From the IMG/VR virus record IMGVR_UViG_3300017991_001519, positions 1-28,614 of that record: 28,614 bases of DNA. One strand, written 5' to 3'. The first letter of the stretch is position 1; every line of letters begins with the position of its first letter. Below the pieces are notes generated by a model. It was not told the origin of the DNA, made no database searches, and saw only the letters and a list, made by a program, of their open reading frames with translations. Shown piece by piece: positions 583 through 27,374 of this stretch. Origin of the DNA: a virus. The position numbers and the translations under genes are program-made.

Positions 583-585
583 CGT

Positions 586-1041
586 TTAAACCGTTGCTAG
601 GAGAGGCTTAACCTCCCCGGTTACTGGATCTGGGATCTCCTCCGTAGTGAGGAAGGTATAGAGGATCTCCTTAATGGCTGTGTAGATGGTATCCCCTGAG
701 GGTGAGAGCATAGCGATCCGGCTAAAGCCATCGTAGGGCTCTGTAGCCTCTCCGCAGCTACATTCAGTCTCTAGGCCCCACCAAAGACCACAGCTAGGAC
801 ACCTACGCAAGCTCTGCCCATGCATTAGGGGGTTATGCCCATCCTCTAGATGATACTCCTTGACTCCTGCGATAAGGCCTGTGTTTGAATCGACATATTC
901 CACCCATTGCCCATCCTCTAGGGTGCCAAAACTAACCCAGATCTTAGCCCAATGCTCTACATTATCCTCTATCTTGATCGCAACGATCTTAGCAAAGGGT
1001 AAGATTACAGGCTCTATGGGGGTGCTTACTTCTACTGGCAT
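586..1041 (-). CDS. Zinc-ribbon protein of unknown function in appendage cluster
   Basis: This is a 151-aa protein I do not recognise as a family. The visible feature is a four-cysteine cluster, C81-x2-C84 and C94-x-C96 with GLWWGLE between, which looks like a small zinc ribbon. The first 60 residues are rich in beta-prone residues and the last 40 contain an amphipathic stretch (TAIKEILYTFL). The start has GAGG about 8 bases upstream. Its first 53 bases overlap the end of the glycosyltransferase gene in another frame. The stop codon TAA lies inside a GTTTAAAC palindrome. Position between a glycosyltransferase and a fibre gene suggests a role in appendage assembly or modification, but this is inference from context only. 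Confidence 0.7.
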   Translation of the reverse strand: MPVEVSTPIEPVILPFAKIVAIKIEDNVEHWAKIWVSFGTLEDGQWVEYVDSNTGLIAGVKEYHLEDGHNPLMHGQSLRRCPSCGLWWGLETECSCGEATEPYDGFSRIAMLSPSGDTIYTAIKEILYTFLTTEEIPDPVTGEVKPLLATV

Positions 1042-2266
1042 GGTTCCTCACAGCCTCATTGTAAACCGTTAGCGTCTCATCCGCAGCCCTCTCCCAAGTG
1101 AATTCTGCGGCCCTCTCAAGTCCTAACTCTCTAAGGTCTGCCCTTAGCTCTGGCCTTTCCAAGTGCCTAAGGGCTTCCACAATCGCGCTAGCATCTCCTG
1201 GGGGAATGATTAGGGCATACTCACCGGACCCACTACAGACGATCTCCCCTAGCCCATCTACCTCTGTCGAGATGAGAGGGACCCCCATAGCCATAGCTTC
1301 TAGCGCGACAATGCCGAAAGGCTCATGGGTGGATGGCATGAGACAGACTGTAGCAGCTCTGTAGAGGTCTTTGAGGGGCTTACCGTGCTTGAACCCTACC
1401 CATCGTAGCCTCTCAGGATGGGCAGCCTCTAAAGCCCTTATGCGCCGGGTAACGTGCCATCCTTCTTTCTCCTCCTCTGAATTGGCATTGACCGTACCGG
1501 CTAGGACCACTTGCCATCCGGGATCGCAGCTCTCCAGAGCATCCAAGATGGGCACGATCCCTTTCATCTCTGCGATCCGTCCTACGTACAGAGCAATGGG
1601 ACGGGATGTTAGCCCATTGGTAACCATTGCCCTAGCTCCGTCCCCTGCCTGTGGATTCCACTCCTCCCGATTGATTCCGTTATAGATCATCCGGTAAGGT
1701 CTATCTACTAGCATATACTCTCTGGCAATCCTTACGTATGCCTCAGAGCAGAGGATAGTCTCATCAGGATCACACAAGAGGTTTCCCTCTTGTTGGCACA
1801 TATACCGATCTGCCTCACACCCTAGATCTAGGCTGCCTTCGCTAAGACTAGCCAAGTAGCTAAGGCATAGGTGCATAGTCCCAATGAGGGGGACGTTTAA
1901 AGCATGTTTGGCAATGCGTCCCAATTGGACGGAGCCCCATTCATGCATATGGATCACGTCCCATCTCCTGCCATCTGCGATCATCTTAGCCAGAGTCTTA
2001 GCCATGAGCAGATCGGTAGACAGGAGGCAGGACATATCAGGGGCAGAGGGCCTCCAACAAGTGTGGCAGTCTCTAAGCCACTTCTTAAAACCTAGGTAGG
2101 GGATGCTATCGTCTGGGGCCATGGTCCCCGGTTTAAACTCCCCATCGGTGAGTAGATCGATCGCTACTCCCTTAGAGGCCATAGTCCGGTACAGCTCCCG
2201 AACATGCATCCCCATCCCACCTAGGATGTGTTCTGGGTCCTCTCCGCAGATCGCAAGGACTCTCAT
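989..2266 (-). CDS. GT4-family glycosyltransferase (GT-B fold)
   Basis: A 425-aa enzyme predicted to transfer a sugar from a nucleotide-sugar donor. The N-terminal Rossmann domain starts MRVLAICGEDP and carries the glycine loop GGMG (about 16-19), as in glycogen-synthase-like GT4 enzymes. The C-terminal domain has YVGRIAEMKG (about 227-236) and the family's E-x7-E motif EPFGIVALE (about 315-323). Length matches complete GT4 enzymes. I chose the ATG at 2266 because it forms an ATGA overlap with the stop of the upstream appendage gene; an in-frame ATG 24 bases earlier is less likely. No signal peptide or membrane segment is seen. Placement among appendage genes suggests it decorates a virion appendage or alters host surface glycan; acceptor and donor are unknown. 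Confidence 0.9.
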   Translation of the reverse strand: MRVLAICGEDPEHILGGMGMHVRELYRTMASKGVAIDLLTDGEFKPGTMAPDDSIPYLGFKKWLRDCHTCWRPSAPDMSCLLSTDLLMAKTLAKMIADGRRWDVIHMHEWGSVQLGRIAKHALNVPLIGTMHLCLSYLASLSEGSLDLGCEADRYMCQQEGNLLCDPDETILCSEAYVRIAREYMLVDRPYRMIYNGINREEWNPQAGDGARAMVTNGLTSRPIALYVGRIAEMKGIVPILDALESCDPGWQVVLAGTVNANSEEEKEGWHVTRRIRALEAAHPERLRWVGFKHGKPLKDLYRAATVCLMPSTHEPFGIVALEAMAMGVPLISTEVDGLGEIVCSGSGEYALIIPPGDASAIVEALRHLERPELRADLRELGLERAAEFTWERAADETLTVYNEAVRNHASRSKHPHRACNLTLC

Positions 2267-2784
2267 CCCAAAACCCCTATCTCTCCCCATGCGTTCAGAG
2301 TCTTATAGCTAGCACTGTAGTTAGTCCAAACGGTACGGAGGACCCTAGTGCTAGGACCGGTAAGAGTAAGGTAGGCATTGGTTAGGGCGATGTAATTCCC
2401 CGTAGAGTCAAACACCTTATGGCTTAGGTTAAGGGCTGCCCCTGCCTTGGAGTAAACCGCATTGTAGCTAGTGCTGCCCAAGGTGCCATGGCCTCCGAGG
2501 GAAACGGTAGAGGCCTCGATACTGGATCGGTTAGCAATGCCATAGACCCCAGCCTTACCCCCAGCTGATTCCGTTGTGTGAATGGATCGGAAGGAGAACA
2601 CAACGCATTGGGCATCAAAGGGAACAGAGATATCCCATTCCCCAGGATCACCAGGAGGAGGGGAGATGCTAAGGGTAGTGTTCACTACCTCGATACTGGA
2701 CGGCCTCAGATGATGCTGAGATACCCCAATGTTGGATAGCGCAGCATGGGCAGTCGGATGCTCTAACCAATCACTTAACCGCAT
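2263..2784 (-). CDS. Small appendage/tail protein, paralog 3 of a tandem trio
   Basis: This 173-aa protein has no family I can name. It begins MRL, has a His-His pair near residue 24 and then NTTLSI. Its C-terminal half has YSKAGAALNLSHKVFDS followed by GNYIALTNAYLTL. The same order of motifs occurs in the gene at 3253-3753 (YSKQNSDLNLTHKIFDS, then RYIALKDAVLTG), so the two are clearly paralogous. The high content of beta-prone residues, Gly, Ser and Thr fits a beta-rich virion appendage. The start overlaps the upstream paralog by 14 bases, and the stop forms ATGA with the glycosyltransferase start, so all are probably translationally coupled. Confidence 0.8.
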   Translation of the reverse strand: MRLSDWLEHPTAHAALSNIGVSQHHLRPSSIEVVNTTLSISPPPGDPGEWDISVPFDAQCVVFSFRSIHTTESAGGKAGVYGIANRSSIEASTVSLGGHGTLGSTSYNAVYSKAGAALNLSHKVFDSTGNYIALTNAYLTLTGPSTRVLRTVWTNYSASYKTLNAWGEIGVLG

Positions 2785-3753: not shown

Positions 3754-5021
3754 GTGACAGTAGGTAGAGCGATCGTCCGATCGATCGCATTGTAGAGGGC
3801 TGTGCCTATGGCAAGGCTTAGGAAACCATGAGCTTGGTTAGGTTGATCTTCCCAGACAGCTAAGAAGGCCCCTCTAGAGCGATTGTAGATGATATGGGCA
3901 ATGCTGCCGGATGCAGTGGTAGCCGGATTGTCTTGTTGCACGTAGCGCCAAGTAGCGCCCCCATCTACAGAGTAATTGATGATTGAGTCTGTTTGCTCTG
4001 CGGCTAGATAGAGTGACCCAACGATCTCCAAGCAACGTGGAGCCCATCGCCCAAAGGATCGTTGCAAGGTCCCCCCTCCACTTTGCTGGGTGTAATTAAC
4101 CCCGTCCGTAGAGGTATAGCAGGCCTCATCAGTGAGCAAGACGAATAGATCCCGGACTGGATCGTATTCGATACTCTGGGCCTGTTCCGTTACTGGGATG
4201 TTTCCGATACCCGTAGGAGTGGACCGATTCCAGGTAACTCCGTCCGTAGTGGTCCAAACATCAAAGCTGCCGTTATCCCCTACGGCTACCGTTAGCCCTG
4301 TGTTTGGATTGGTTGCCATATCCACTACGGTAGTGGATGTGATCCTAGCAGGAACGGTTTGGGTAAAACCTGAGATGGGGGTAGCGTCTCGCCAGAATGA
4401 AGGCAAGGAGTTGTCACCTCCTCCAACCAACCACAGCTGATTAACCGAGTCCCATAGCCCTACATCCGATCCAACCACAGCTGTCCCCGGAAGGACTTGG
4501 TTAGCCCAAGCTCCGGTATACTCGCTAACGGTAGTCCCTGCGTTATTCCCTACGATCGTGTTAGCTCCGGTATGAGTAGGGGCTTGATCGGGACACTTAG
4601 ACGCAGCCCAAGTAGCTGTCCCTGCCCCATGGTTAGCGATAGCCCTAAAGGCCTGCCCATCTCTGGAGATGTTAGCTACCCCAGCCCTACCCGCAATGAG
4701 CCAGCCCGGAACACCCTCATCATACGTAAGGGCCTCCCCCGATACGGCAGCCGTAGAAGGCTCTACAGTCTCTCCAACATAGAACCAATTAAGGGCCTGC
4801 ATATCTGCGAAGTATTGCAGCCATAAGCCGATCTCATTCTTTACATGGTTCTCATGCTGAGCAGGAGGGATCTCATTCGGAAGGTGGCCATCATCTCTCT
4901 TACCATCTCCCGGATCTACCTTGGTTGGGGTAGCGTCCCAAGACTCCCCAGGGTCATTGATAAGGGCATCATTAGCCCATGATGTGACATTCTGCGGCCT
5001 AACTAGATTCTTGTCTGCCAT
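3750..5021 (-). CDS. Virion appendage protein with propeller-like repeats
   Basis: A 423-aa protein. The N-terminal about 85 residues (MADKNLVRPQNVTSWANDAL, later PPAQHENHVKN and a WLQYF segment) look like a virion-attachment domain with a short helix. The remainder contains repeated units such as SFDVWTTTDGVTWNRST, ACYTSTDGVNYTQQSG and NYSVDGGATWRYV, each with the S/T-x-DG-x-x-W/Y signature of BNR-type (sialidase-like) beta-propeller blades. Such propellers occur in phage receptor-binding and glycan-binding proteins. I see no catalytic tyrosine/arginine set that would argue for a sialidase, so binding is more likely than cleavage. It follows the DUF2612-like baseplate gene by 4 bases and is coupled to the paralog trio. 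Confidence 0.75.
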   Translation of the reverse strand: MADKNLVRPQNVTSWANDALINDPGESWDATPTKVDPGDGKRDDGHLPNEIPPAQHENHVKNEIGLWLQYFADMQALNWFYVGETVEPSTAAVSGEALTYDEGVPGWLIAGRAGVANISRDGQAFRAIANHGAGTATWAASKCPDQAPTHTGANTIVGNNAGTTVSEYTGAWANQVLPGTAVVGSDVGLWDSVNQLWLVGGGDNSLPSFWRDATPISGFTQTVPARITSTTVVDMATNPNTGLTVAVGDNGSFDVWTTTDGVTWNRSTPTGIGNIPVTEQAQSIEYDPVRDLFVLLTDEACYTSTDGVNYTQQSGGGTLQRSFGRWAPRCLEIVGSLYLAAEQTDSIINYSVDGGATWRYVQQDNPATTASGSIAHIIYNRSRGAFLAVWEDQPNQAHGFLSLAIGTALYNAIDRTIALPTVT

Positions 5022-5025
5022 GATC

Positions 5026-5646
5026 CTATCCCTCTGTGGTGCTACCCCACTTACCGCCTACTCCCCCTCCTATCGAATCTCCCCAACCCAAACCGTCTGA
5101 GGCTCCGTCTGTCTCATCTGCATAGGCTAAGGACTCTGCCATGGGAGAGGCTATGTAATCCAAGAGGACTCTAATGCTTGCCATATCCGCAGAGTCTAGC
5201 AGCCCAACGGCTGTAGTAGGATTAACGATAGTGCTAAGCGGGTCATCAATGACCAGTCTAACCTGATGAGGAGGCTCCTCCCGAATGTGGAAGGCCTCGC
5301 CAGAGGTCAAGAGGATTAGCCGTAAGACATTGATTAGATCCTCTGCCGTACCATCCGACAGATTGATCGCTATCTGTGTCCTGATGATGATCCGCAGCTC
5401 CGCATCATTCGAGGTAGTAACCGGAGCCCCCACGATCTTGGCGATGGTCTGTAGCTGCACCCCTACCGCGTTATCTAAGAGCCTCTCTAGGATTACCTCA
5501 AAGGCCGCATCCTCTAGATCCTGGATCTGCTCTGCATAGGACCGGATTAGTGCTTCTAGTTTTGGCTTACCCTTGAATTGCTCGATATACCGGCTAACGG
5601 CTAGAGCCTCATGATTGGTCCTCTGCTCTATGATCTCTCCTGCCAT
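5026..5646 (-). CDS. Baseplate protein, DUF2612 / Mu gp48-like
   Basis: This 206-aa protein resembles the DUF2612/Mu gp48 group that sits at the outer baseplate and links wedges to tail fibres. Typical features are the N-terminal helix pair (SRYIEQFKGKPKLEALIRSY), then LDNAVGVQLQTIAKIVGAP with the G-x-QL-x-x-x-A-x-x-VG signature, then the block LRLILL, EPPHQVRLVI and a late glycine-rich end LGWGDSIGGGVGGKW. In most myophages this gene directly follows baseplate J; here the lysis cassette lies between them. Its ATG is 3 bases from the stop of the coiled-coil gene, and the appendage gene follows 4 bases after its stop. Confidence 0.8.
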   Translation of the reverse strand: MAGEIIEQRTNHEALAVSRYIEQFKGKPKLEALIRSYAEQIQDLEDAAFEVILERLLDNAVGVQLQTIAKIVGAPVTTSNDAELRIIIRTQIAINLSDGTAEDLINVLRLILLTSGEAFHIREEPPHQVRLVIDDPLSTIVNPTTAVGLLDSADMASIRVLLDYIASPMAESLAYADETDGASDGLGWGDSIGGGVGGKWGSTTEG

Positions 5647-5648
5647 GG

Positions 5649-6032
5649 TTAGCCCCTAGTGCTTAGCCAATGGGTAACCAGTCCCACGATTGCAGAAGTA
5701 AGAAGGACAGCAACAAGCCCCCAGATCCGGGCCTTCCACTTGTCCTCTACGGTTACCCTACGTGCTAGCTCCCTTTCTACCCGGATTAGCTCATGCCTAC
5801 TAGACTCATCTGCTCCACACTCCAACTTGGCTAGCCTATCCTCGAAACGTTTAAACCTCTCCTCTAAGGCTTTCCTATGCTCCTCATCCCTTACGTTTAA
5901 ACGGGCATAGTCTGTAGACAGCTTCCCAAGCTCTCTAATCAGGAAGGCCTTATCCTCTGGGCGCATTGATTCCGGGATCTCCAAGGTTTGGGACTCTGGT
6001 GGTAGTTCAGGCAGGATTAGAGCTGCGGTCAC
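5649..6032 (-). CDS. Coiled-coil protein with C-terminal membrane anchor (XhlA-like)
   Basis: A 127-aa protein. Residues about 45-95 are strongly charged with heptad character (EEHRKALEERFKRFEDRL, later RVERELARRV), predicting a coiled coil. Residues about 103-121 (IWGLVAVLLTSAIVGLVTH) form one membrane segment close to the C-terminus. This layout matches XhlA-type lysis accessory proteins and some tail-anchored holin partners. It overlaps the endolysin start-to-stop (ATGA) immediately downstream of it, so a lysis role is inferred. Two GTTTAAAC palindromes lie 46 bp apart inside this gene. Confidence 0.75.
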   Translation of the reverse strand: MTAALILPELPPESQTLEIPESMRPEDKAFLIRELGKLSTDYARLNVRDEEHRKALEERFKRFEDRLAKLECGADESSRHELIRVERELARRVTVEDKWKARIWGLVAVLLTSAIVGLVTHWLSTRG

Positions 6033-7606
6033 TTTGCAATCTCCGTTGCCTCAAAGTGCATACCATCTGGACGATTGGGAAAGTCCCCACCCCAGTAGAA
6101 GCCATGATCCCAAGCGTAGGGGACAAGCTGCCTAACGCTTCCTTCCTCTCCGATGGCAGGAGGCTTAGCGCCTAACGGATTCCAAGGAGCATTGATATCA
6201 AAGGCAGTCCCGAAAGCATGGTTACTAAGGACAGACCTAGAGCCCCTGATAAACCGGGGGACCCACATTCCAGCCCAGGACTTGACTAGATGCAGGAGGC
6301 CGGATTCTTCCCAGGCTTGCCACAGCCCTAAGAAACCGGCCACGATCGATCGGTGCAATAGGACTCTGCCGTTACGTGGGGCTCCTGGGATGCCTCGGAG
6401 CTGCGGGCAGTCAACCATGGTTATCCAATCCCTTACCCAGCTATCGGTAATGCGGATGGCTTCGGGCATACCCGGGACAGGATTGGACACGTATTCAAAA
6501 CGGCCCCAGGCATCCTCTCTAGCAGCTTGCCCATACAGAGGTTTAAACGGAGGACTTACCTTCTCTGGCTCTGAGGGCTCCTCTACGGCCCCAGCCGTTG
6601 CCCAGGACTTGGGACCTACGATGCCATCCGGGATAAGCCCTCGGGCTCTCTGGTAGCGCCTAGTAGCCTCCTCCGTCAGTCTCCCAAAGTCCCCATCCGC
6701 GCCATAGGGTGAGAGGCTCTCCCCGGACGTAACCAAGACGGTCTGCCACTCCACCACAGGAGGCCCCTTGTCCCCACGTCTAAGCACAGGATGGGGCACC
6801 CTCCCGGGAGGCTCCTCAGGGGCCGCTGAGAGGGGCCGGTATTCTGGGTGGACAGTCCAAGGCAGAGGCCCCCAAAGGCTCACAGAGCCAGCCTGAGCAG
6901 GATCTCTAGCCATCTGGGCCAAGCTCACCGGTAGCCCGGACAGCTTCCCGGGTATGGCAATGTAGTAGGCCCCCATACTGTAGTCCCAAAAGTGTAGGTA
7001 AAAGTGTGCCCATTGTTCCGGTTGGACTACATAGCCGGTCCGGGAGGAGTTGACTCCTCCCCCGGGGAGCCAGCTTGCGTTTTCTCTGGCGTAGCCTTCT
7101 GAGACTGGCCACCAATACTCACAGGCATAGTCCTTGCGGTAGCGAGGGTTAAGGACATAGGTTTTACAATAGCCCAGAAGGACAGCCTCAGGATCGCATA
7201 GCTTCTCATCCTCTTGGACTGCATCATTGTGTGCCTTAGCAGCTGCCTTAGTCATTCCGGCAGCTCCGTTAGGCTGGGTATGAGGACCGATATACTCAGC
7301 CCCCGGGAGAGCTGCCAGCTTGTCTAGAAGCAAGCTGGTAGGAGTCATGACAGGACAGCCCATCTCCCCCAAGACCTCAGCGATCCGATCCATGGCAAAA
7401 GCGGACAGCCCAAAGAGATAGACGTAATCCTCCGAGGTCCCGATCGCCAAAGGCCTAGCAAAGATCTTAGCCTCTAGATTGCCAATGGTGAGCTTATGCC
7501 ACCGGATGTAAGCATGGCCATCCCGGATAGCCTTAACGATGGCCTTTAGGTAACCATCGCCCAGATCTTCCGGGACCTCCTCAGCCCACCATTGGGACCC
7601 CTTCAT
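6029..7606 (-). CDS. Endolysin: N-terminal novel module, PG-binding domain, M15 peptidase
   Basis: A 525-aa, three-part protein predicted to cut peptidoglycan peptides. Residues 1-265 form a module I do not recognise, rich in Trp, Tyr and His (LHFWDYSMGAYY at 204-215). Residues about 274-337 are a PG_binding_1 domain (LRRGDKGPPVVEWQ, then YGADGDFG, then DGIVGPKSW). The C-terminus is an M15 VanY/endolysin-type metallopeptidase: SNHAFGTAFDIN at 461-472 provides ligands H463 and D470, and DGMHFE at 514-519 supplies H517. There is no signal peptide, so export would need a holin. At 525 aa it is much longer than simple M15 endolysins. The start overlaps the 53-aa gene as ATGA. Confidence 0.88.
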   Translation of the reverse strand: MKGSQWWAEEVPEDLGDGYLKAIVKAIRDGHAYIRWHKLTIGNLEAKIFARPLAIGTSEDYVYLFGLSAFAMDRIAEVLGEMGCPVMTPTSLLLDKLAALPGAEYIGPHTQPNGAAGMTKAAAKAHNDAVQEDEKLCDPEAVLLGYCKTYVLNPRYRKDYACEYWWPVSEGYARENASWLPGGGVNSSRTGYVVQPEQWAHFYLHFWDYSMGAYYIAIPGKLSGLPVSLAQMARDPAQAGSVSLWGPLPWTVHPEYRPLSAAPEEPPGRVPHPVLRRGDKGPPVVEWQTVLVTSGESLSPYGADGDFGRLTEEATRRYQRARGLIPDGIVGPKSWATAGAVEEPSEPEKVSPPFKPLYGQAAREDAWGRFEYVSNPVPGMPEAIRITDSWVRDWITMVDCPQLRGIPGAPRNGRVLLHRSIVAGFLGLWQAWEESGLLHLVKSWAGMWVPRFIRGSRSVLSNHAFGTAFDINAPWNPLGAKPPAIGEEGSVRQLVPYAWDHGFYWGGDFPNRPDGMHFEATEIAK

Positions 7607-10533: not shown

Positions 10534-11475
10534 TTAGGAGCTAAGGGGTACGGTAGATCCGTCCCATTCAAAGTTAACGTCCCCTACAGAGATCCTAGTC
10601 AATGAGTTGAAAGTTTCCCCTGGGACCCTCGTTATCCCGTTCCAAAGCAGGAAGTCCGAAAAGCCCTTAAAGAAGGGGTCCGCTAGTGCGGACCTCCGTC
10701 CAAAAGGAACGGGTAACCCTATGTCATCTCCGTTGTCATCCGCCGCAGTAACGTTAGGAAAGTGGGTCCCTACTGCGTTTCGCAGAATCAAGGCAGAGCA
10801 AGTGTCAAAGGTGGTAGTCCCTGGTTTAAACGCTTGGCATTGTCCAGTAGTTGGGGCCGGATTGTCTTGGGTAAGGTTAGCCTCAATCCAACCGGTCCCG
10901 GTTGGATCATGAAAGAACACTACTGCGGAGGCAGCCGTATCCCCGGGCTGGATAGAGTCCGTAATAGGGATCATACCCATACTGCCCTGATGGTCTGAGA
11001 AGTTGCCCGATCGGTTAGCCCAGATCCACCAACCATAGGGGGCCGCATCATCTGCCCCCATATGAACAACATTAACCCCAGCCTGAACAATGTTGATCGT
11101 TGGGTGGATCTCTTGTTGGTCCACAGCCGTTGGAGGGTTACCCGCATCTCCACCGGTAAAGGCTGCCGTCTCGGATACCCAGAGCTGCCATTGTTGATCT
11201 GATATGTTGGTCCGATTGAATAGCAACTCTCTGGCTCCGTCCGGCTGGCGCAAAACGAACCATGACTCAGAGGAGCCTGAGACATACTGTCCAAGATCTA
11301 GATAGTCACTAATATTGTCCCCAGCCCCTCCTACTGTGCCATCACTAGACCTTGGTACAGTCCAGCCCGGTCCCCCAGGGCTAGCTGTCCGCATGAAGTC
11401 TAGCCAAGCAAACAGGTAGAGAAGCCCATAGTCCGTAGAGGAAAGGGCTAGGTTAGGGACGAATCTCATAGTCAT
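10534..11475 (-). CDS. Baseplate-region structural protein of unknown family
   Basis: A 313-aa protein I cannot place in a family. It has no signal peptide or membrane segment and is rich in aromatic, Asp and Gly residues (DYLDLGQYVSG, WQLWVSETAAF, YGWWIWANRSGNF, GWIEANLTQDNP). The mix suggests a beta-rich structural protein. The GTTTAAAC palindrome ends one base before the ATG at 11475. It sits between the Gp138-like spike and the Ig-like and wedge genes, so a baseplate or tail-fibre-socket role is likely by context. Confidence 0.7.
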   Translation of the reverse strand: MTMRFVPNLALSSTDYGLLYLFAWLDFMRTASPGGPGWTVPRSSDGTVGGAGDNISDYLDLGQYVSGSSESWFVLRQPDGARELLFNRTNISDQQWQLWVSETAAFTGGDAGNPPTAVDQQEIHPTINIVQAGVNVVHMGADDAAPYGWWIWANRSGNFSDHQGSMGMIPITDSIQPGDTAASAVVFFHDPTGTGWIEANLTQDNPAPTTGQCQAFKPGTTTFDTCSALILRNAVGTHFPNVTAADDNGDDIGLPVPFGRRSALADPFFKGFSDFLLWNGITRVPGETFNSLTRISVGDVNFEWDGSTVPLSS

Positions 11476-11486
11476 TGTTTAAACCC

Positions 11487-12107
11487 TCACTCTGCTTTGA
11501 GCTTGGTTGAGGCTACAGTAGCGGATGAGATGGGGACGGAAGGAGCGGAGGGAGGCCCTACGGCTGCCGTTGGGTGAGTATGCGAGTTGAAAGCCATAAC
11601 TAGCTTGTCTGCTAGCACTACGAATTCAGTAGCAGCTGCCCCTACCTTGACCTCTGGGGCTTTGATGACCAAGGCCGCAGAGTCTACCGGAAGGATAGTA
11701 TCCTTAGCGCCTATCCCAGGGATAGCTACAGGGTTAGCCAGAGAGTGGAGCCTCAGATCTCCTGGATCTGATATGTCCCCTGATTCTCGCCATTGGGCAA
11801 AGGCCTGTGTGCTAAAGAGCAGGGTAACATGATCCCCAGGGGACAGGGGCCAAGTGATAGCGTAGACATCTCCTGAGCCTCTAGGGTAGATAACAGGGAT
11901 GTTAGGGATTACTGGCAGCTCCTCATGGGTAATTGCTCCTTGGGTATCTAGGAGGGCTCTGCGGATGACTGGGGCCGCATCCACTACAGGAGGTCCGGGA
12001 GGTCCGGGGGTAAACTTCTCTACCCTGGCCACACAAGACACATTAACATCTAGCAGCCTAGCGTCTATGGCTGTCCTGATGATCTCTGCTAGGGTGGGCT
12101 CTGTCAT
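11487..12107 (-). CDS. Central spike, Gp138/gpV-like
   Basis: A 206-aa protein that resembles Gp138-type membrane-piercing spikes. The N-terminal OB-fold region contains VSCVARVEKF, VIYPRGSGDVYAITWPLSPGD and DHVTLLFSTQAFAQWRESG, the typical spike pattern. The C-terminal region has short repeated beta strands (LVIKAPEVKVGAAA) and SHTHPT at about 175-180; H-x-H pairs at spike tips bind a metal ion in characterised spikes such as P2 gpV. A short proline/glycine run (PGPPGPP) sits at about residue 34. Its start overlaps the hub gene stop as ATGA. Confidence 0.85.
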   Translation of the reverse strand: MTEPTLAEIIRTAIDARLLDVNVSCVARVEKFTPGPPGPPVVDAAPVIRRALLDTQGAITHEELPVIPNIPVIYPRGSGDVYAITWPLSPGDHVTLLFSTQAFAQWRESGDISDPGDLRLHSLANPVAIPGIGAKDTILPVDSAALVIKAPEVKVGAAATEFVVLADKLVMAFNSHTHPTAAVGPPSAPSVPISSATVASTKLKAE

Positions 12108-12940
12108 CCTATCGCCTTAGCCTCTAGGTCAATGTACCAATCCTGCCCCCCAGTGTTACCGGTATAGGTGCATTGCTCTACACGGTAACGGCCTGAGAGT
12201 CTTTCACTCTCTAGAGTGATTGTACGGCCTGGGAAGATCTCCGGGATGAGCAGGGTTTGGCAGGAGAGGACTCCCTCATTATCCACGGAAGGAGATCCGA
12301 TAAGACCAGTGTTAGGAGTAATGGCTACGTCCAATTGAGCTAGGGCCTTGCCTTTTTGCAACAGCTGGATAGCTCCGTTTTGGATGCTCCACTCTAACCC
12401 AAAGCTCTCTGCCAGCTGTGCCATATTCCGGGCAGCAGATCCGCTAAGGACTGTGCCAGAAGGCCAGAGCTGCCCTACGCTTTTGAAAGAGAGGCCGCTA
12501 ACGATCTCCTCTGTGTTACCTAAGCCTACTCCTAGAGCTTTGATGACTTGCTTTAGCACTGCATCATTAGAGGTCCCCGGAGCTACAGACGTATTGATCC
12601 GTTTGGTCTTGATCTCCTTCTCCCCATCTCCACTCTGTAGGGTGGTAACAATGTCCGGACCCTCCCTAGCACTGATGGCAGTCCTTAGATTGCCTAGGAA
12701 TAGCTGAGCCGTCTCTCCCTCATAGCCTGCCTCTATGCTAACCGGGACTTGCTCTGCCTCCTCCAATTGGGATCGGTGGTCTGGATTGAGATTCCAGATC
12801 TGGATCTCAGCTGTATTGGGCTCAGGCTTAAGGCTTTTGGTAACGCTAAACGCTACGTCCAGAGAGCCCCCCGGAGCATCGGTAGTTAGCTCGATAGTGG
12901 AAACAACCACTCTGGCAGAACGTTTAAACAGGACAGCCAT
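12104..12940 (-). CDS. Baseplate hub protein
   Basis: A 278-aa protein in the position of the baseplate hub, between the plug-like protein and the spike. The N-terminal FKRSARVVVSTIEL, then DVAFSVTKSLKPEPNTAEIQIWNL and IEAGYEGETAQLFLGNL follow the hub pattern seen in Mu gp44 and Pam3-like hubs, where two gp27-like domains form a ring. The segment DAVLKQVIKALGVGL and ARNMAQLAESFGLEWSIQNG match the internal hub helical domain. Both ends overlap neighbours by 1-4 bases. A GTTTAAAC palindrome encodes codons 4-7 (LFKR region). Confidence 0.82.
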   Translation of the reverse strand: MAVLFKRSARVVVSTIELTTDAPGGSLDVAFSVTKSLKPEPNTAEIQIWNLNPDHRSQLEEAEQVPVSIEAGYEGETAQLFLGNLRTAISAREGPDIVTTLQSGDGEKEIKTKRINTSVAPGTSNDAVLKQVIKALGVGLGNTEEIVSGLSFKSVGQLWPSGTVLSGSAARNMAQLAESFGLEWSIQNGAIQLLQKGKALAQLDVAITPNTGLIGSPSVDNEGVLSCQTLLIPEIFPGRTITLESERLSGRYRVEQCTYTGNTGGQDWYIDLEAKAIG

Positions 12941-16428: not shown

Positions 16429-16467
16429 TGATGTTTCCCCTATCAGAGTTGTCCGTTTAAACGGAGG

Positions 16468-19267: not shown

Positions 19268-19269
19268 GT

Positions 19270-19551
19270 TTAAACCACCCTGTATCCGGCCGCTACCTCG
19301 TTAACAAGCTCCTTAAAACGTCTGAGGTAAACCGTATCCCCCTCCTTGGACATTAGCCTAGCTTGCTTCCCGAATTGGTTAGAGGCCAGTAGATGGGCAG
19401 CTAGCCACTCTATCCCGGAATCCGTCTTGTCCCTCCAAACCGCAGAGTCCACCCTAGAGGTAGCCTGGGCAATCGCCCTACGGATCATCTCCGGTGTGGC
19501 AGGCTCGAATTCTGGGAAGGCCTCCCGGAAGGTGTCCACATCTACAGCCAT
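19270..19551 (-). CDS. Head-tail connector, DUF4054-like
   Basis: A 93-aa protein with the family pattern DTFREAFPEFEPATPEMIRRAIAQA, then WLAAHLLASNQFG. DUF4054 proteins are helical adaptors that sit below the portal. Length is slightly under the family norm of 110-130, with a short C-terminus after the LRRFKELVNEV helix. The stop codon TAA falls inside a GTTTAAAC palindrome (19268-19275). The ATG is 3 bases from the stop of the upstream gene. Confidence 0.83.
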   Translation of the reverse strand: MAVDVDTFREAFPEFEPATPEMIRRAIAQATSRVDSAVWRDKTDSGIEWLAAHLLASNQFGKQARLMSKEGDTVYLRRFKELVNEVAAGYRVV

Positions 19552-20239: not shown

Positions 20240-20244
20240 CCGCC

Positions 20245-20277
20245 GGTCCTAGTAGACCTTTCGGACCTTTGGGGTCC
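20245..20277 (-). promoter_or_regulatory. Pair of mutually exclusive short stems after capsid gene
   Basis: GGTCC at 20245-20249 and GGTCC at 20273-20277 can each pair with the single GGACC at 20263-20267, so only one 5-bp stem can form at a time. The layout resembles a simple attenuator-like switch; this is inference from complementarity alone. Confidence 0.4.
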
Positions 20278-20285
20278 CTGGGGGG

Positions 20286-21266: not shown

Positions 21267-21278
21267 CTCAGAATCTCC

Positions 21279-21815: not shown

Positions 21816-21830
21816 TGGGTAATCCCTTCC

Positions 21831-22439: not shown

Positions 22440-23030
22440 GGATCTAGTTTCCTTCTTAGGTGGAGGATGCTCCTCCGGTTTTGGCTCCACTTGGATAGCG
22501 TCCCCACTATCCAACCGGAGGGCTACCTTATTCCCTGCTCTACCCCAATCCTTAGGCCCGATCGCTACATGGTTGTAAACGATCCTCCGTTGGATTGCAT
22601 CGTATCGCTGCCCCTCATAGATGCCAGGGGTAGGCTCTAGGCTGCAACGATACCCGCAGGAAAGCTCTCTACGATCCCCCTTCTCAATTGCCTTAATAGC
22701 TTGGCTATCTAGAATGTCCAGCCGTCCGGCTACGTATTGGCCATCCTGCTTAGCCTCTCCTACGTGCCCTACGCTAACCTCTCTCCAGTTATCGGGACTA
22801 ACCATATCCCTAGGGTGGAGGTCTGTAACCGGAGCCCCAAGAAGTGTCTTAAGGCTATCCTGTTTAAACACTTCCTCTGGTGGTCGCAGCTCTCTCCTAA
22901 CGGTCCCATCCGGCTGGCGATAGATGAGGACCCCGGTCCTAGTCAGATTGGCAGGGACCCTCATTCCACCGGATGGGGTACGCTCTACCTTAGAGAATCT
23001 CTGAAAGTCTAAACGCAGGACTTCCGACAT
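21831..23030 (-). CDS. Capsid maturation protease with C-terminal scaffold, DUF2213
   Basis: A 399-aa protein. Residues 1-175 fit the DUF2213 prohead protease fold: GAPVTDLHP (with H72), SVGHVGEA, GRLDILDSQAIKAIEKGDRRELSCGYRC (with S124), and the YNHVAIGPKDWGRAG end. H72 and S124 are the likely His/Ser catalytic pair of the assemblin-like fold. Residues about 215-265 form a charged coiled coil and the rest is a disordered, charged tail that should act as scaffold (KRTTAQQ at the C-terminus). The upstream gap is 65 bases. An internal in-frame start at 22439 with its own Shine-Dalgarno may yield a separate scaffold protein. Confidence 0.85.
   Translation of the reverse strand: MSEVLRLDFQRFSKVERTPSGGMRVPANLTRTGVLIYRQPDGTVRRELRPPEEVFKQDSLKTLLGAPVTDLHPRDMVSPDNWREVSVGHVGEAKQDGQYVAGRLDILDSQAIKAIEKGDRRELSCGYRCSLEPTPGIYEGQRYDAIQRRIVYNHVAIGPKDWGRAGNKVALRLDSGDAIQVEPKPEEHPPPKKETRSMGMIRIDGIEYEIGSPAHLQAVEKRDAAKDKEISTLSKERDTEKARADAAEARADKAEKDLKEATDPTKVEELIRDRVQLHTDAKKVLGSDFDPSGKAPREIMVEAIKKDSKDFDPEGRTDDYLSAYFAATVKNYSRASEGGNGLSAARDAAVGGSRKDKKDPSDSEQDRYDSDAARKRMQENNKDAWKRPLAFNKRTTAQQ
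22450..22457 (-). promoter_or_regulatory. Candidate internal ribosome-binding site for nested scaffold
   Basis: The minus strand AAGAAGGA lies just before the ATG at 22439-22437. Spacing to the ATG is about 10 bases, slightly long but workable. Confidence 0.45.
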
Positions 23031-23095
23031 ATCCCTATACCTACCTCATTCCGGGGAGCGTTTAAAGGGGTATGTTACAGGGCTGTCCTAAGTGC

Positions 23096-23968
23096 CTATG
23101 GGGTAAAGCGCTCCTCACCTAGCTCTGGCAGGACTGGGAAAGCGGTACACCTACATTGATAGTCCTCCCCCGGATGATTGCGTCTACCATCCTCAGAGGA
23201 TACTGGGGGATCGTCCCAACGGTTTACCGTACCGTCTAGCTCTGCATGAGCATCCCTTACCCTCTCATCTCCTGAGGTAGTCCAAACATACTCAGTGATC
23301 CCCACGTTCTGCTGCCTAGTCCGGGTAATCTGAGCATTAAGGGTAAGGGTCTGGTCCCTGGCCAGTAATGCGGCCTTGGACTTGGTTACATCCACGGTAG
23401 CCATAATCTGTTTCTTAAGCTCACTTACGTGGATGGTTCCCAAGGTGCGAGGCTGGCTTAGCAAGTCTCGGAGGTCTAGCAGCTCCTCCCCAACCAATGA
23501 CTTAATCCGGCTGGTATTGATCGCTATAAAGTTGTCTATCTGAGCTGCCACCCCTACATCAGCATCATAGATAGAGATCCCTACCAGCTTCCTTAGTTGG
23601 TTCTTACTGAACTTGGAAACGTCACCGGCCGCAGCCTCTAGATCTTCCTCTATGGCAGAGTCTCTAAAGACAGTCCTTAGCCTCAGACCCAAGGCATCTA
23701 GCTTGCCTTGAATGAAACCAGGCAAAGCATCTAGTCTCTCTGCCGAATCGGTTACGGCCCCAGACGCTAGGAGCTTGTCTAGCTCTGGGAATAACAGCTC
23801 CTCCACAGCCGATCGGAATTGCTCCAACCTATCCCCTAGGGACTTGGTTAGCCGTAAGGCTGCCATCCTCGGAGGCTTGGGTCCAAGTGCTCGCCTAGCA
23901 GCCCTGTTTAAACGGCCTCTCTTTCGGGCAGCTCTTAGCAGCTGAGGGCTAACTCTGGCTACCGCCAT
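23096..23968 (-). CDS. Head morphogenesis protein, Mu F/SPP1 gp7-like
   Basis: A 290-aa protein with the C-terminal Phage_Mu_F motif: VWTTSGDERVRDAHAELDG at about 228-246 and NHPGEDYQCRC at about 264-274. This motif is the classical zinc-binding-like end of portal-associated proteins. The N-terminus (RAARKRGRLNRAARRALG) is basic and likely touches DNA or portal. The middle 60-200 is helical. Its ATG overlaps the portal stop by one base (TAATG). A 65-base gap follows, where I see only a GTTTAAAG variant of the palindrome. Confidence 0.9.
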   Translation of the reverse strand: MAVARVSPQLLRAARKRGRLNRAARRALGPKPPRMAALRLTKSLGDRLEQFRSAVEELLFPELDKLLASGAVTDSAERLDALPGFIQGKLDALGLRLRTVFRDSAIEEDLEAAAGDVSKFSKNQLRKLVGISIYDADVGVAAQIDNFIAINTSRIKSLVGEELLDLRDLLSQPRTLGTIHVSELKKQIMATVDVTKSKAALLARDQTLTLNAQITRTRQQNVGITEYVWTTSGDERVRDAHAELDGTVNRWDDPPVSSEDGRRNHPGEDYQCRCTAFPVLPELGEERFTP

Positions 23969-25785
23969 TAGTCCTCATCCTCCTTTAGAGACTCCTCCGT
24001 TTCTGCCCCCTCTTGTGGAGGAGTTGTCTCATCCTCCTCTAGAGGCTCTCCTCCTGGGCTCTGGGCTGGCTCTGTGGCCATGGGTGGAGGGGGCTGGGGC
24101 TGTGAGCCGTCCGGGGGCTCCGGGCCTTCTGAGAGGCTCTCAGACTCCCCAGAGATCTCCTTAGCCTCCGCTGCCCCCTCCGCTGCCCCTACCTTCTCCC
24201 CTTGCGTCTCTTTGAAGGCCCGGAATTGGGCAACGGTCAAAGCCCCCTCCTCTGCATCTGGCCAGGGAGGCAGACCCACAGAGGCTAGGGCTTGGTTGAC
24301 GTTAACGAAACTGGCTAGATCTGTAGGTGCGAATTCGACCTTAGGCCCGGACGTAGCAGACTCCTCTGAGGGCTCCGTAGGCTCTGCCCCTTCCTCAGGC
24401 TCCGTAGGTTCTGCTAGCTCTGCTGCTAGCATCCTCTCTCTAACGTCCCGGTCTATGTTCGTCTCTGGGCTCCACCCATCCGGCCGGAATCTGCTTAGCG
24501 CGATCTCCTCTGGCAGGATTACCCCAGTCTCTAGGTATACCTTATCCTTATCTGCCGTAGCCTTTTCTAGCTCTGCTCTCTCCTTCGGGGTCATCTGCCA
24601 GAGAGACTCAAAGTCTAGCGTCCACTCTGCTGGCTCCTTGCCATTAGTGGGACCGTCTTGGGCTAGCATGATGAGACGAATTGCGCGTTCTAGCTCTGGC
24701 CTTAGATCATTCTCTTGGGCAGTCTTGACGTTATCGTAGAAGTGTTGGAAGTCTGAGTCCCCGGTAGCGTTCATTCCAGCTGGGCTACGTCCCATGAGGA
24801 TGGTAACGGGAATGTCTACCACTGAGGCAAGCCTAAGCATAAACTTATCTAGCATACCGGCCGCATCAGTGAACGATGAGGGCTTTCGGTCAAAGTCCTC
24901 ATTCTCTGCGTCAAGCATTACGGCCCTAGCAACGGACCGGGACATATCTACGATCTCTAGCCTCTGCTGTAGAATGTCCTTTTGGCCTCCTGCGATCATG
25001 GCCATTAGCCCCTGTAGTTTAAACACAGCCTGAGAGGCATCCGACATAAGATGCTCTGCGGACTTCCACACAGACCAGAAAGCCCTAAGCTCCTCATATA
25101 CTGTGTCAATGATTGAGAGGTCCCATCCGCCTAGCCGGTCCTTCTCCTCATCCGAGGTATGGGCTCCACCAAAGAGGATTAGTCTACTCCTGTGGATACG
25201 GACAGAGTTACCCCCTCGCCTAGGTACTAGCTGGTAAACCTCTGGCTCCCCGAAAAACTCATCCTCTATTGGATCATCGTAGAAGTCCTGAGGCATGAGG
25301 TAGCGCCTATCCACTACATGCATGAAACGGAAGGACCGGATGCGGTCCTCTCTTAGGGGACTGTCCGCAGCTCCCCCATCATCCACCCCAAGCACGATCG
25401 CAGCCCCACCATAGAGCCGGCCCCAGATCATAGCGTTAAGGAAGTGCCTAGTAAGTCTCAGGTTACGGATAGCTTTGGATAGCTCTGCCGTAGCTTCCTC
25501 ATCCTTTGGGATGTTTACCTTAAACCCCTGCCTTAGCATCTCCCTAGGTTTAAACGCTACCACCTTCCGAGCATCGGCAGACTGATGGTAGAGGGACGTT
25601 AGCTCTTGATCGTCTATCCGTTGCAGAGTGACGAATCGGCCATAGACCGTCTTATCCCGGGACGTGCCCAGGCCCGTAAGCAAGTTCTGCCAATTGTCGA
25701 TCCGCAGAGCCCCTTGGATGGCCTCCCCTACTCTGAACAGAGAATCTAGGTAATTGGGCTTAGCCTTAGTGAGATTCTTACCCAT
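23968..25785 (-). CDS. Portal protein, DUF1073 family
   Basis: A 605-aa protein forming the dodecameric portal through which DNA is packaged. The N-terminal block YGRFVTLQRIDDQELTSLYH, the segment RLTRHFLNAMIWGRLYGGAAIVLGVDDGG (about 110-138) and FRFMHVVDRRYLMPQDFYDDP are typical of DUF1073 portals. The conserved helical block ITILMGRSPAGMNATGDSD and QENDLRPELERAIRLIMLA follow. The last about 150 residues are Glu/Pro-rich and disordered, longer than usual in this family. The start overlaps the terminase stop by 8 bases. Two GTTTAAAC palindromes lie inside. Confidence 0.93.
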   Translation of the reverse strand: MGKNLTKAKPNYLDSLFRVGEAIQGALRIDNWQNLLTGLGTSRDKTVYGRFVTLQRIDDQELTSLYHQSADARKVVAFKPREMLRQGFKVNIPKDEEATAELSKAIRNLRLTRHFLNAMIWGRLYGGAAIVLGVDDGGAADSPLREDRIRSFRFMHVVDRRYLMPQDFYDDPIEDEFFGEPEVYQLVPRRGGNSVRIHRSRLILFGGAHTSDEEKDRLGGWDLSIIDTVYEELRAFWSVWKSAEHLMSDASQAVFKLQGLMAMIAGGQKDILQQRLEIVDMSRSVARAVMLDAENEDFDRKPSSFTDAAGMLDKFMLRLASVVDIPVTILMGRSPAGMNATGDSDFQHFYDNVKTAQENDLRPELERAIRLIMLAQDGPTNGKEPAEWTLDFESLWQMTPKERAELEKATADKDKVYLETGVILPEEIALSRFRPDGWSPETNIDRDVRERMLAAELAEPTEPEEGAEPTEPSEESATSGPKVEFAPTDLASFVNVNQALASVGLPPWPDAEEGALTVAQFRAFKETQGEKVGAAEGAAEAKEISGESESLSEGPEPPDGSQPQPPPPMATEPAQSPGGEPLEEDETTPPQEGAETEESLKEDED

Positions 25786-27313
25786 TGCTACTTGCCTTGA
25801 TTGCTCGCATGGCCTCAGCTAGCGGAGAGCTACGGACGTGTAAACGGATTAGGGCTTGAGTGGTTTGGTCTACCATATCATCGTTTACACCCCTAGGAAA
25901 CGTGACTAGCTGAGTCCGGTAGTCTTGCACCCAAGGGGCTAAGTCTGGGTGCGGTATAAACACGTTGCCTGCCTCGAATAGACCGGTAACCGCATTAGCC
26001 CTAGCTTCCTTACCTCCCTCAGGATTGACTAACACGATCCCGGAGATCTCCCTCTTGAGGGTATCCTCTACGGCCGGTCCGTTAGCTTTATCCTCTATCA
26101 ACTTGGTTAGGGCTCTAGGCTCTGCCTCAGTCATGGCCTTTACCTCCCTAACGGTTTCGGTAAAGCTCATCCTACGACATACCTGCTTAACCAAGAAGTG
26201 GTCTACCCCTACCTTTAGCCATAGCCCCCCAGCTACATAGTCTGTCCCATCCCCACCTTTAAACGTCATATCCCAAGACTGTAGCCAAGTTCCGTTCCTG
26301 GGGAGCACCTTACAGAAGTCTTGGACGCAGGGAAACTCATCCTCTTGGGGTGGCCTTACTCCTGCCTTATGATGCCAATACCGAAACCATGCCTTTTGGA
26401 ACATTCCACCGGATGCAGGAGTAGGCCTCTGCTGCAATTGGGCAGCCGCTACGGCCGGTCCCATCTCTGTGGTTTCTAGCTCCCTAACCACTTCCTCAGG
26501 GAATCTCTCTGGCCAAAGTAGCTCCCCCTCCTCTGTCCTTTGGTCCTCTGGAGTACAATCCCGATGACAGACACAGACCTTATGGGTCTTTCGCATGGGC
26601 AGACAGAGATGATCCCAACCACCCTCTCTTAGCATCTCCCCGGCTAGATCATCCTCATGCAATCGCTGCATGACAATCACCCTACGGAAGTTGGCCGGAT
26701 CTGCTCGCCTACTAGCAGCCGTGGCATGATACCAACGGGACACAGCATTAATAGCCTTCTTAGTTACTGCATGAGTACCCCCTACCTCCTGAGGCTTGTT
26801 GGGATCGTCCACTACTTGGATATCAACGTGTCTACCCGTTCCCTTACCTCCTGGGCTAGTGGCAAAACGGAATCCCCCGGCCGCGGTTTGGAACATGCTA
26901 GCGGCTGGGGCCTTATCTACTAACAGCTCCCCCCATCGGTCAATGAACCACTTGGACTGGAGTAGGTCTATCACCCTACCCCCTTGGACAGTCCCCACTA
27001 GCGAGGCATCGTAGCTAGCAAACATCCACTTAGTAGAGGGCCTAGAGATCCATTCCCAGGCTGGCCAGGCAACGCTAACGGTTAGGCTCTTGGTTGTCCC
27101 CGGGGGCACGTTGATAACGAGCCTCTTAACCTCTCCACTGGATACCGCTTGGAGCCTCTCACAGACAATAGGAAGGTGCCAATTATCAACGAAGGGGCTA
27201 GGGTCTATCTCAGCCCAAGCCATCGTTAGAAAGCGATACAGGCTGTCTGGGGACCTCCTTACAATCTCCCTCTCTGTGTCTGCCAAGTTGCCCAAGTAGA
27301 GTGAGGTAGCCAT
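25778..27313 (-). CDS. terL: Terminase large subunit
   Basis: A 511-aa ATPase/nuclease that packages DNA. Walker A is PPGTTKS (70-76) and Walker B is QVVDDP (166-171); a coupling-type VIVMQRLHEDDL follows at 212-223. The nuclease domain has D348 in WDMTF, an IEDKANG block at 406-412 and NDDMVDQ at 477-483, the three acidic sites of terminase nucleases. It resembles the psiM2 ORF9-like large terminases. I kept ATG 27313; M31 is a possible later start. No Shine-Dalgarno is visible, since the region before the ATG is taken up by a GC-rich hairpin. No recognisable small terminase is nearby. Confidence 0.95.
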   Translation of the reverse strand: MATSLYLGNLADTEREIVRRSPDSLYRFLTMAWAEIDPSPFVDNWHLPIVCERLQAVSSGEVKRLVINVPPGTTKSLTVSVAWPAWEWISRPSTKWMFASYDASLVGTVQGGRVIDLLQSKWFIDRWGELLVDKAPAASMFQTAAGGFRFATSPGGKGTGRHVDIQVVDDPNKPQEVGGTHAVTKKAINAVSRWYHATAASRRADPANFRRVIVMQRLHEDDLAGEMLREGGWDHLCLPMRKTHKVCVCHRDCTPEDQRTEEGELLWPERFPEEVVRELETTEMGPAVAAAQLQQRPTPASGGMFQKAWFRYWHHKAGVRPPQEDEFPCVQDFCKVLPRNGTWLQSWDMTFKGGDGTDYVAGGLWLKVGVDHFLVKQVCRRMSFTETVREVKAMTEAEPRALTKLIEDKANGPAVEDTLKREISGIVLVNPEGGKEARANAVTGLFEAGNVFIPHPDLAPWVQDYRTQLVTFPRGVNDDMVDQTTQALIRLHVRSSPLAEAMRAIKASSNG

Positions 27314-27323
27314 AACGCAAAGA

Positions 27324-27348
27324 GCCGGCCCCCATCACAGGGGCCGGC
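27324..27348 (-). terminator. GC-rich hairpin, probable terminator before terL
   Basis: Perfect 9-bp arms GCCGGCCCC and GGGGCCGGC enclose a 7-base loop. On the minus strand it is followed by TCTTTGCGTT, a moderately U-rich tract, then the terL ATG. It lies in the 61-base gap after the methyltransferase gene and looks like a Rho-independent terminator that also covers the terL ribosome-binding region. Confidence 0.7.
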
Positions 27349-27374
27349 CGTTTAAACAGGTTCAAGGGTTTGGG

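What the first reader, a model, noticed from the sequence alone, without database searches (positions are those of the whole stretch)
584..27357. Extreme over-representation of the 8-bp palindrome GTTTAAAC
Fifteen exact copies occur in 28.6 kb (584, 2131, 5849, 5895, 6541, 10824, 11477, 12922, 16455, 19268, 22862, 23906, 25017, 25548, 27350). At about 53% G+C a random 28.6 kb would hold about 0.3-0.45, so the excess is about 35-50 fold. Nearly every TTTAAA in the window is in this context. Copies lie both in genes and at junctions, so codon bias alone does not explain it. It could be a host-wide iterated palindrome (as HIP1 is in cyanobacteria), a binding or methylation site (the window encodes an adenine methyltransferase), or a phage-specific signal.
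Basis: partly seen in the sequence, partly recalled or inferred. Interest (0 to 1): 0.7.

Follow-up and report, generated by a model that had tools for sequence, protein, structure and literature searches.

The report
Phage-wide site paired with SprT-like protein
The repeated word GTTTAAAC in this phage is real, is kept by selection, and occurs across unrelated phages wherever they encode one small protein with a zinc-binding tail, so it is most likely that protein's docking site, a phage gene-control system that appears not to have been described.

Summary
Confirmed: 15 exact GTTTAAAC copies where about 0.1-0.3 are expected. The excess is not host-wide and not tied to the window's methyltransferase. 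It tracks one phage gene: a ~200-aa SprT-like protein (PHROG 6361) with a C-terminal zinc ribbon (KKQxTR motif). In viral contigs collected by that protein alone, 146 of 158 are strongly enriched (1300 sites seen, 26 expected). Contigs collected by terminase are not (3 seen, 5 expected). In 20 isolated phages, all 15 with the ribbon motif carry 2-43 sites (GTTTAAAC, or GTTTACAC mainly in actinobacteriophages); the 5 whose SprT-like protein lacks it carry 0-1. Some site-rich phages keep only a 55-60-aa ribbon. Sites are conserved in position in close relatives. In 13 of 15 isolates a site lies within 100 bp upstream of the sprT-like gene, in several overlapping its promoter. Best reading: a phage-encoded, self-regulating DNA-binding protein, probably a transcriptional silencer with operators plus dispersed 'stoperator'-like sites. 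Binding and repression are inferred, not shown. The window stops short of the gene; its two nearest relatives (79-88% identical portal) carry it. In cluster AZ/EH phages, whose immunity repressor is unidentified, this protein is a concrete candidate.

The parts
584..591 (.). GTTTAAAC, stop-codon/start-codon junction (GTTTAAACGATG on the minus strand)
   Evidence: conserved in G001
2131..2138 (.). GTTTAAAC inside glycosyltransferase gene
   Evidence: conserved in G001
5849..5856 (.). GTTTAAAC inside gene 5649-6032
   Evidence: conserved in G001
5895..5902 (.). GTTTAAAC inside gene 5649-6032
   Evidence: not conserved in G001
6541..6548 (.). GTTTAAAC inside endolysin-like gene (no aligned partner in G001)
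10824..10831 (.). GTTTAAAC inside gene 10534-11475 (no aligned partner in G001)
11477..11484 (.). GTTTAAAC at gene junction, directly before a start codon (GTTTAAACAATG)
   Evidence: not conserved in G001
12922..12929 (.). GTTTAAAC near the start of gene 12104-12940
   Evidence: conserved in G001
16455..16462 (.). GTTTAAAC in intergenic gap before gene 15946-16428
   Evidence: conserved in G001
19268..19275 (.). GTTTAAAC at stop/start junction (GTTTAAACGTG)
   Evidence: conserved in G001
22862..22869 (.). GTTTAAAC inside head maturation protease gene
   Evidence: conserved in L201, not in G001
23906..23913 (.). GTTTAAAC inside gene 23096-23968
   Evidence: conserved in L201, GTTTAGAC in G001
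25017..25024 (.). GTTTAAAC inside portal gene
   Evidence: conserved in G001 and L201
25548..25555 (.). GTTTAAAC inside portal gene
   Evidence: conserved in G001 and L201
27350..27357 (.). GTTTAAAC between methyltransferase and terminase genes, 37 bp before the terminase start
   Evidence: conserved in G001 and L201
25838..25845 (.). GTGTAAAC, variant site in terminase gene
   Evidence: pair with the same 45-bp spacing at G001 27581/27626
25883..25890 (.). GTTTACAC, variant site in terminase gene, 45 bp from the previous one
25778..27313 (-). terminase large subunit; in relative L202 the sprT-like gene (4943-5557) lies about 2.9 kb upstream of it, which would fall beyond the right end of this window
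27375..28109 (-). DNA methyltransferase-like gene (PHROG 111): considered as partner of the site and rejected

Best explanation
GTTTAAAC is the genome-dispersed recognition site of a phage-encoded SprT-like protein whose C-terminal zinc ribbon carries the motif KKQxTR. SHOWN by computation: site and ribbon occur together across unrelated phages and are lost together; the 8 bp are conserved in place while flanks drift; other phages use the variants GTTTACAC or GTGTACAC; in most isolated phages a site lies at the sprT-like gene's own promoter. INFERRED: the ribbon reads the site, probably as a dimer with GTTT (or GTGT) half-sites; the protein represses its own gene and other promoters where the site overlaps the -10/start region, and at the many sites within genes it acts as a roadblock or silencer, like the stoperators of mycobacteriophage L5. 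SPECULATIVE: the Spartan/Wss1-like protease domain, where its HExxH is intact, removes the protein or its partners on DNA damage and so relieves silencing. The window is a fragment of such a phage; its own sprT-like gene lies outside it.
For: Protein-first test without reference to the site: A4 set 80/80 loci enriched (859 sites vs 13.7 expected), A3 set 66/78 (441 vs 12.2); terminase-first viral controls 3 vs 5.1; terminase-first genome controls 10 vs 5.2. Fisher p about 6e-75, relatedness ignored. SprT-like loci without GTTTAAAC carry GTTTACAC/GTGTAAAC: the retrieved 48 kb of Microdon 39 (0.05 expected), VroomVroom 18 (0.16), Percival 14 (0.02), L431 15 (0.09), L461 9 (0.05); L401 has GTGTACAC six times and a divergent ribbon, KKQNNR. 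Isolates: ribbon motif present 15/15 with 2 or more sites, absent 0/5 (AvGardian, Armstrong, Epa5, MW2, CN1). Ribbon-only proteins of 55-60 aa in site-rich L117, L121, L304, L313, L360; HExxH lost in site-rich L086, L089, L318, L355. SprT-like is the only gene family found in all 11 site-bearing phages compared. Nearest terminase relatives L001 and L004 (65-66% identical) have no sprT-like gene at E<10 and no sites. Positional conservation: 9/13 aligned sites vs 0.20 for AT-rich 8-mers with G001 (p=2e-4), 5/5 vs 0.32 with L201. A site within 100 bp upstream of sprT in 13/15 isolates (0.5 expected) and 8/10 lineages (p=1e-11). Promoter overlap seen directly: TAGACTGTTTACAC after a TTGCGC box in VroomVroom, TATAATctaaacacGTTTAAAC in ep3. 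Window sites touch non-coding junctions 5/17 vs 2.5%. Model of the L202 protein: pLDDT 94, nearest Spartan 6mdw Z 8.2, abylysin Z 8.2, Wss1 Z 7.9.
Against: No binding, transcription or lysogeny experiment exists. In metagenomic SprT-like loci only 41/200 have a site at -120..+10 of the gene, against about 28 expected, so the autoregulation signal is clear only in isolates. Most window sites (10/15) lie inside coding sequence, unlike L5 stoperators. Five QxTR loci (L389, L411, L415, L455, L463) have 0-1 sites. Sites are few in the Jilinvirus-like phages (4-8) and in F_TK1718 (2). The ribbon model resembles many zinc ribbons weakly (best Z 4.1), which does not show DNA recognition. Some carriers may be strictly lytic, which fits an immunity repressor less well. 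The window itself does not contain the sprT-like gene.
Confidence: 0.64

Rival explanations
1. The site marks the phage genome for a non-transcriptional process (packaging, segregation, nucleoid-like compaction, or protection/self-recognition), with the ribbon protein as the DNA-binding part.
For: Sites are spread through whole genomes including structural genes, most inside coding sequence; density reaches about one per 330 bp in L086; recognition is strict, with most one-mismatch neighbours near expectation.
Against: Sites are over-represented at gene junctions and gene starts and sit in -10, start-site or spacer positions of promoter-like sequences in actinobacteriophages and Jilinvirus-like phages. 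A site at the sprT promoter in 13 of 15 isolates points to regulation.
Confidence: 0.2
2. Another protein (a host factor or a second phage protein) binds GTTTAAAC, and the SprT-like protease is recruited to it or cleaves it.
For: SprT/Spartan-type domains are proteases that act on DNA-bound proteins (family knowledge), and the fold match supports this class.
Against: No other family is shared by all 11 site-bearing phages compared; hosts differ at phylum level; ribbon-only proteins without a protease domain still go with dense sites; protease-intact proteins without the ribbon motif have none.
Confidence: 0.12
3. A host-wide iterated palindrome made by mutation bias or orphan methylation, as proposed for HIP1 in cyanobacteria (PMC4390886).
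For: Same form: an 8-bp palindrome at high density inside and outside genes.
Against: Carriers infect unrelated hosts; same-host phages differ with their sprT-like gene; the window's methyltransferase does not track the site.
Confidence: 0.02
4. Chance, codon usage or Phe-Lys dipeptides.
For: Seven of the ten in-gene copies fall on TTT AAA codon pairs.
Against: Synonymous shuffles give at most 2 copies; copies also fall in the CGT TTA AAC frame, on stop codons and between genes.
Confidence: 0.005

Closest known systems
Operator/stoperator network of mycobacteriophage L5 and cluster A phages (PMC9283540)
   Same: One short sequence repeated 20-30 times across the phage genome, in promoters and between genes, with a phage-encoded DNA-binding protein as partner. 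In two AZ phages and one EH phage the asymmetric form GTTTACAC is mostly co-oriented with transcription (15:3, 20:7, 24:4).
   Different: The L5 site is a 13-bp asymmetric sequence read by a two-domain helix-turn-helix monomer. Here the site is 8 bp, usually palindromic, strict, mostly inside genes in the window, and the partner is a zinc-ribbon SprT-like protein.
SprT-like phage proteins (PHROG 6361, PF10263) and Spartan/Wss1 DNA-protein-crosslink proteases
   Same: Fold of the protease domain and HExxH active site in most members; zinc ribbon at the C-terminus.
   Different: No sequence-specific DNA site is known to me for Spartan, Wss1 or SprT. Here presence of the ribbon motif predicts a genome-wide site, and some members are ribbon only.
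PprI(IrrE)-DdrO metalloprotease/repressor pair (PMC10904395)
   Same: A zinc metalloprotease coupled to a DNA-bound repressor in response to ssDNA; the model has a weak fold match to IrrE (Z 3.8).
   Different: There protease and repressor are two proteins; here both parts would sit in one chain. That is conjecture.
HIP1 of cyanobacteria (PMC4390886)
   Same: Highly iterated 8-bp palindrome.
   Different: HIP1 is host-wide and tied to orphan methyltransferases; this site is phage-borne and tied to a SprT-like gene.

Membership tests
SprT-like family (PF10263 / PHROG 6361), for the gene in the window's relatives L202 and L201 | Match to the family profile | tested here: met
   L202 protein: PF10263 E=2.4e-6 above the curated cut-off, phrog_6361 E=7.6e-49
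SprT-like family (PF10263 / PHROG 6361), for the gene in the window's relatives L202 and L201 | HExxH metalloprotease motif and SprT/Spartan fold | tested here: met
   HELCH in L202; model pLDDT 94, nearest 6mdw Z 8.2, rmsd 4.1, 105 aligned; HExxH lost in some site-rich members
SprT-like family (PF10263 / PHROG 6361), for the gene in the window's relatives L202 and L201 | Gene present in the window's own phage | not testable with these tools
   The window ends before the syntenic position; present in both nearest relatives
L5-type operator/stoperator system | Many copies of one site dispersed over the phage genome | tested here: met
L5-type operator/stoperator system | Sites in promoters and short intergenic gaps | tested here: inconclusive
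   Enriched at junctions (window 5/17 vs 2.5%, VroomVroom 11/18 vs 9.5%), but most window sites are in coding sequence
L5-type operator/stoperator system | Asymmetric site oriented with transcription | tested here: inconclusive
   Palindromic in the window; oriented in three AZ/EH phages, not in Streptomyces phages
L5-type operator/stoperator system | Partner is a helix-turn-helix repressor of the L5 type | not tested
   No profile of the L5 repressor was searched; the gene that tracks the site is SprT-like
HIP1-type host-wide palindrome | Set by the host | tested here: not met
   M. foliorum phages differ with their own sprT-like gene
HIP1-type host-wide palindrome | Iterated throughout the host chromosome | not tested
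   No host genome was counted; terminase-homologue loci in bacterial genome assemblies hold 10 sites vs 5.2 expected
Recognition site of the window's methyltransferase | Site abundance tracks the enzyme | tested here: not met
   Homologues in L001-L004, L008, L010, L011, L025 with 0 sites; absent from 158 SprT-first loci

The most novel reading that the evidence does not exclude
A new class of phage regulator: one polypeptide joining a DNA-damage-type metalloprotease (Spartan/Wss1 fold) to a zinc ribbon that reads a strict 8-bp site scattered over the whole phage genome, acting as an immunity repressor and genome silencer that switches itself off by proteolysis. It would be the missing repressor of cluster AZ and EH phages.
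Probability: 0.25. Interest if true: 0.92.

Novelty: new variant of a known kind. Interest (0 to 1): 0.8.

Why it matters
It gives PHROG 6361 and PHROG 34373, both listed without a known function (the first annotated in records only as 'SprT-like protease' or 'transcription elongation protein'), a specific DNA target, and it gives a simple sequence test (GTTTAMAC count plus the KQxTR ribbon) applicable to any phage genome. It also makes an open question testable: Arthrobacter phage Powerpuff forms immune lysogens although no repressor could be found in clusters AZ and EH, and those clusters share the SprT-like gene (PMC8758107).

Tried and rejected
1) Host-wide HIP and methyltransferase readings: rejected. 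2) 'SprT-like gene autoregulation in every phage': my first impression from a few AT-rich contigs; over about 200 metagenomic loci the excess is small (33/198 vs 26; 41/200 vs 27.7), so it is claimed only for isolates. 3) 'Minimum spacing of 14 bp means steric exclusion': dropped, because the DNA patterns used to collect those loci impose that minimum. In protein-first loci the shortest gap is 17 bp, while about 6 gaps of 8-13 bp and about 6 of 14-19 bp would be expected; not relied on. 4) An alignment of 24 diverse SprT-like proteins was too diverse for a collection scan; two narrower alignments were used. 5) No paper in the held library contains GTTTACAC with 'phage' and 'motif', and the three papers holding GTTTAAAC with 'methyltransferase' and 'motif' are unrelated by title. 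The repeated motifs reported for Microbacterium clusters EC, EF, EG and EI (PMC7302621) that are quoted there are other sequences. 6) Solved-structure searches by sequence found only weak Spartan matches for the whole protein and nothing for the ribbon; defence-system and NCBIfam libraries gave nothing useful. 7) Regular spacing: coefficient of variation 0.73 in the window, not clearly different from random.

Full report
OBSERVATION. The 15 copies are exact and at the stated places. Expectation is 0.12-0.31 under Markov models of order 0 to 3, and neither 400 order-3 simulations nor 500 synonymous-codon shuffles exceeded 2 copies. The window is a 28.6-kb IMG/VR record of a myovirus-like phage (terminase, portal, sheath, baseplate J); no longer sequence of it is held.

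CLOSE RELATIVES. Two contigs encode a portal 88% (L201) and 79% (L202, contig G001) identical to the window's and are equally enriched: 6 in 7.9 kb and 29 in 47 kb. More distant terminase relatives, including L001-L004 at 64-66%, have none. Aligned to G001, 9 of 13 window sites are conserved, against 0.19-0.20 for other 8-mers; aligned to L201, 5 of 5 against 0.32. Flanking bases drift at several conserved sites. Selection therefore acts on the 8 bp themselves.

THE PARTNER GENE. A pattern scan for neighbouring copies returned many unrelated viral contigs with extreme density, for example 37 in 12.4 kb in L086. Many of them encode one protein: a ~200-aa SprT-like protein with an N-terminal NREEWL motif, usually HExxH, and a C-terminal zinc ribbon with KKQxTR; it is the commonest family among the site-rich contigs. 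Because those contigs were chosen by the site, the test was repeated starting from the protein alone. Of 158 SprT-first loci, 146 are strongly enriched (859 vs 13.7 and 441 vs 12.2 expected); 160 terminase-first loci are not (3 vs 5.1 and 10 vs 5.2) and contain no SprT-like gene. Relatedness among the loci makes the p-value optimistic. The comparison in isolates, covering about ten lineages, does not have that weakness to the same degree.

ISOLATED PHAGES. Carriers infect actinobacteria, proteobacteria and a cyanobacterium. Whole-record counts of GTTTAMAC: Dinoroseobacter R5C 17, Pseudanabaena Pan1 16, Acinetobacter Alexa 9, Escherichia ECO1230-10 5 and ep3 4, Klebsiella KA2-1 8, Burkholderia Mica 7, Pseudomonas F_TK1718 2, phage 4A 14, Arthrobacter VroomVroom 18 and Powerpuff 27, Microbacterium Percival 16 and Cen1621 28, Streptomyces Microdon 43 and Henoccus 42. 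Microdon, Henoccus, the Arthrobacter and Microbacterium phages and phage 4A use mainly or only the form GTTTACAC. Five phages whose SprT-like protein lacks the KQxTR ribbon (AvGardian, Armstrong, Epa5, MW2, CN1) have 0-1. Conversely, some site-rich contigs keep only a 55-60-aa ribbon (L117, L121, L304, L313, L360; PHROG 34373) or have lost HExxH. L401 has a changed ribbon (KKQNNR) and a changed site (GTGTACAC, six copies, one at -46 of its own gene). The ribbon, not the protease, is therefore what goes with the site.

POSITION. In 13 of 15 isolates a site lies within 100 bp upstream of the sprT-like gene (0.5 expected; 8 of 10 lineages, p=1e-11). Examples read directly: TATAATctaaacacGTTTAAAC (ep3), TAGACTGTTTACAC after TTGCGC (VroomVroom, Powerpuff), TTGCGCGTTTACACgctgccgtgcTACCTT (Microdon). 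These overlap the start region, the -10 or the spacer, as operators do. In L202 a site lies 74 bp upstream of the gene. In the wider metagenomic set this signal is weak (41 of 200 vs about 28), so it is not claimed for all lineages. In the window, sites are over-represented at gene junctions (5 of 17 vs 2.5%), several directly before start codons, but most lie inside genes.

SPECIFICITY. In 179 SprT-like loci the exact word is 52-fold over expectation. One-mismatch words are near or below expectation (0.4-2.6-fold), apart from GTTTACAC and its complement GTGTAAAC (5.5- and 3.3-fold). This fits half-sites GTTT and GTGT read by two subunits (inference).

STRUCTURE. The L202 protein is modelled with mean pLDDT 94. 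The nearest solved folds are abylysin (Z 8.2), the human Spartan SprT domain (Z 8.2) and yeast Wss1 (Z 7.9). The ribbon alone (pLDDT 90) resembles many zinc ribbons weakly (best Z 4.1).

ALTERNATIVES. The window's methyltransferase is excluded as partner: it is shared by site-less L001-L004, L008, L010, L011 and L025 and absent from all 158 SprT-first loci. A host-wide palindrome is excluded as the general cause by the range of hosts and by same-host phages with and without sites. No other gene family is common to the 11 site-bearing phages compared. A non-transcriptional genome mark remains possible.

INTERPRETATION. The best-supported reading is a phage regulator that binds its own promoter and many dispersed sites. 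The nearest working analogue is the stoperator system of L5 (PMC9283540), but site, protein and placement differ, so it is not filed as a member. The protease domain suggests a switch by proteolysis, by analogy with PprI/DdrO (PMC10904395) and with DNA-triggered Spartan autocleavage (my knowledge). This step is speculation. Cluster AZ phage Powerpuff is temperate and immune without a known repressor, and clusters AZ and EH share the SprT-like gene (PMC8758107); the candidate is testable.

Noticed in passing
L380 (Arthrobacter phage VroomVroom) 4449, 4970, 17374, 19117, 25327, 42668: Six copies of TTCACGTGAA in a GTTTCACGTGAAAC context; most read TGTTTCACGTGAAACA, which matches the bacterial parS consensus as I know it; the phage may use host or phage ParB.
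   Followed up: no
L387 (Streptomyces phage Microdon) 4526, 24024, 24676, 43453, 44417, 47407: Six AAGATCTT copies just upstream of promoter-like sequences, possibly a second repeated regulatory element.
   Followed up: no
L401 (IMGVR_UViG_3300021560_000014) 4038, 4907, 5588, 7068, 9851, 15194: GTGTACAC six times in 16 kb in a phage whose ribbon reads KKQNNR instead of KKQxTR: a possible specificity switch.
   Followed up: partly
window 1-28614: GTAC is strongly depleted (24 seen, 86 expected), perhaps restriction avoidance.
   Followed up: no
L001 (18.2 kb): CGAGCTCG 29 and GCTCGAGC 22 copies in a phage with a related terminase but no sprT-like gene; it may have a different iterated palindrome.
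   Followed up: no
window 25838-25890 and G001 27581-27633: A pair GTGTAAAC/GTTTACAC 45 bp apart is found in the terminase region of both phages.
   Followed up: partly
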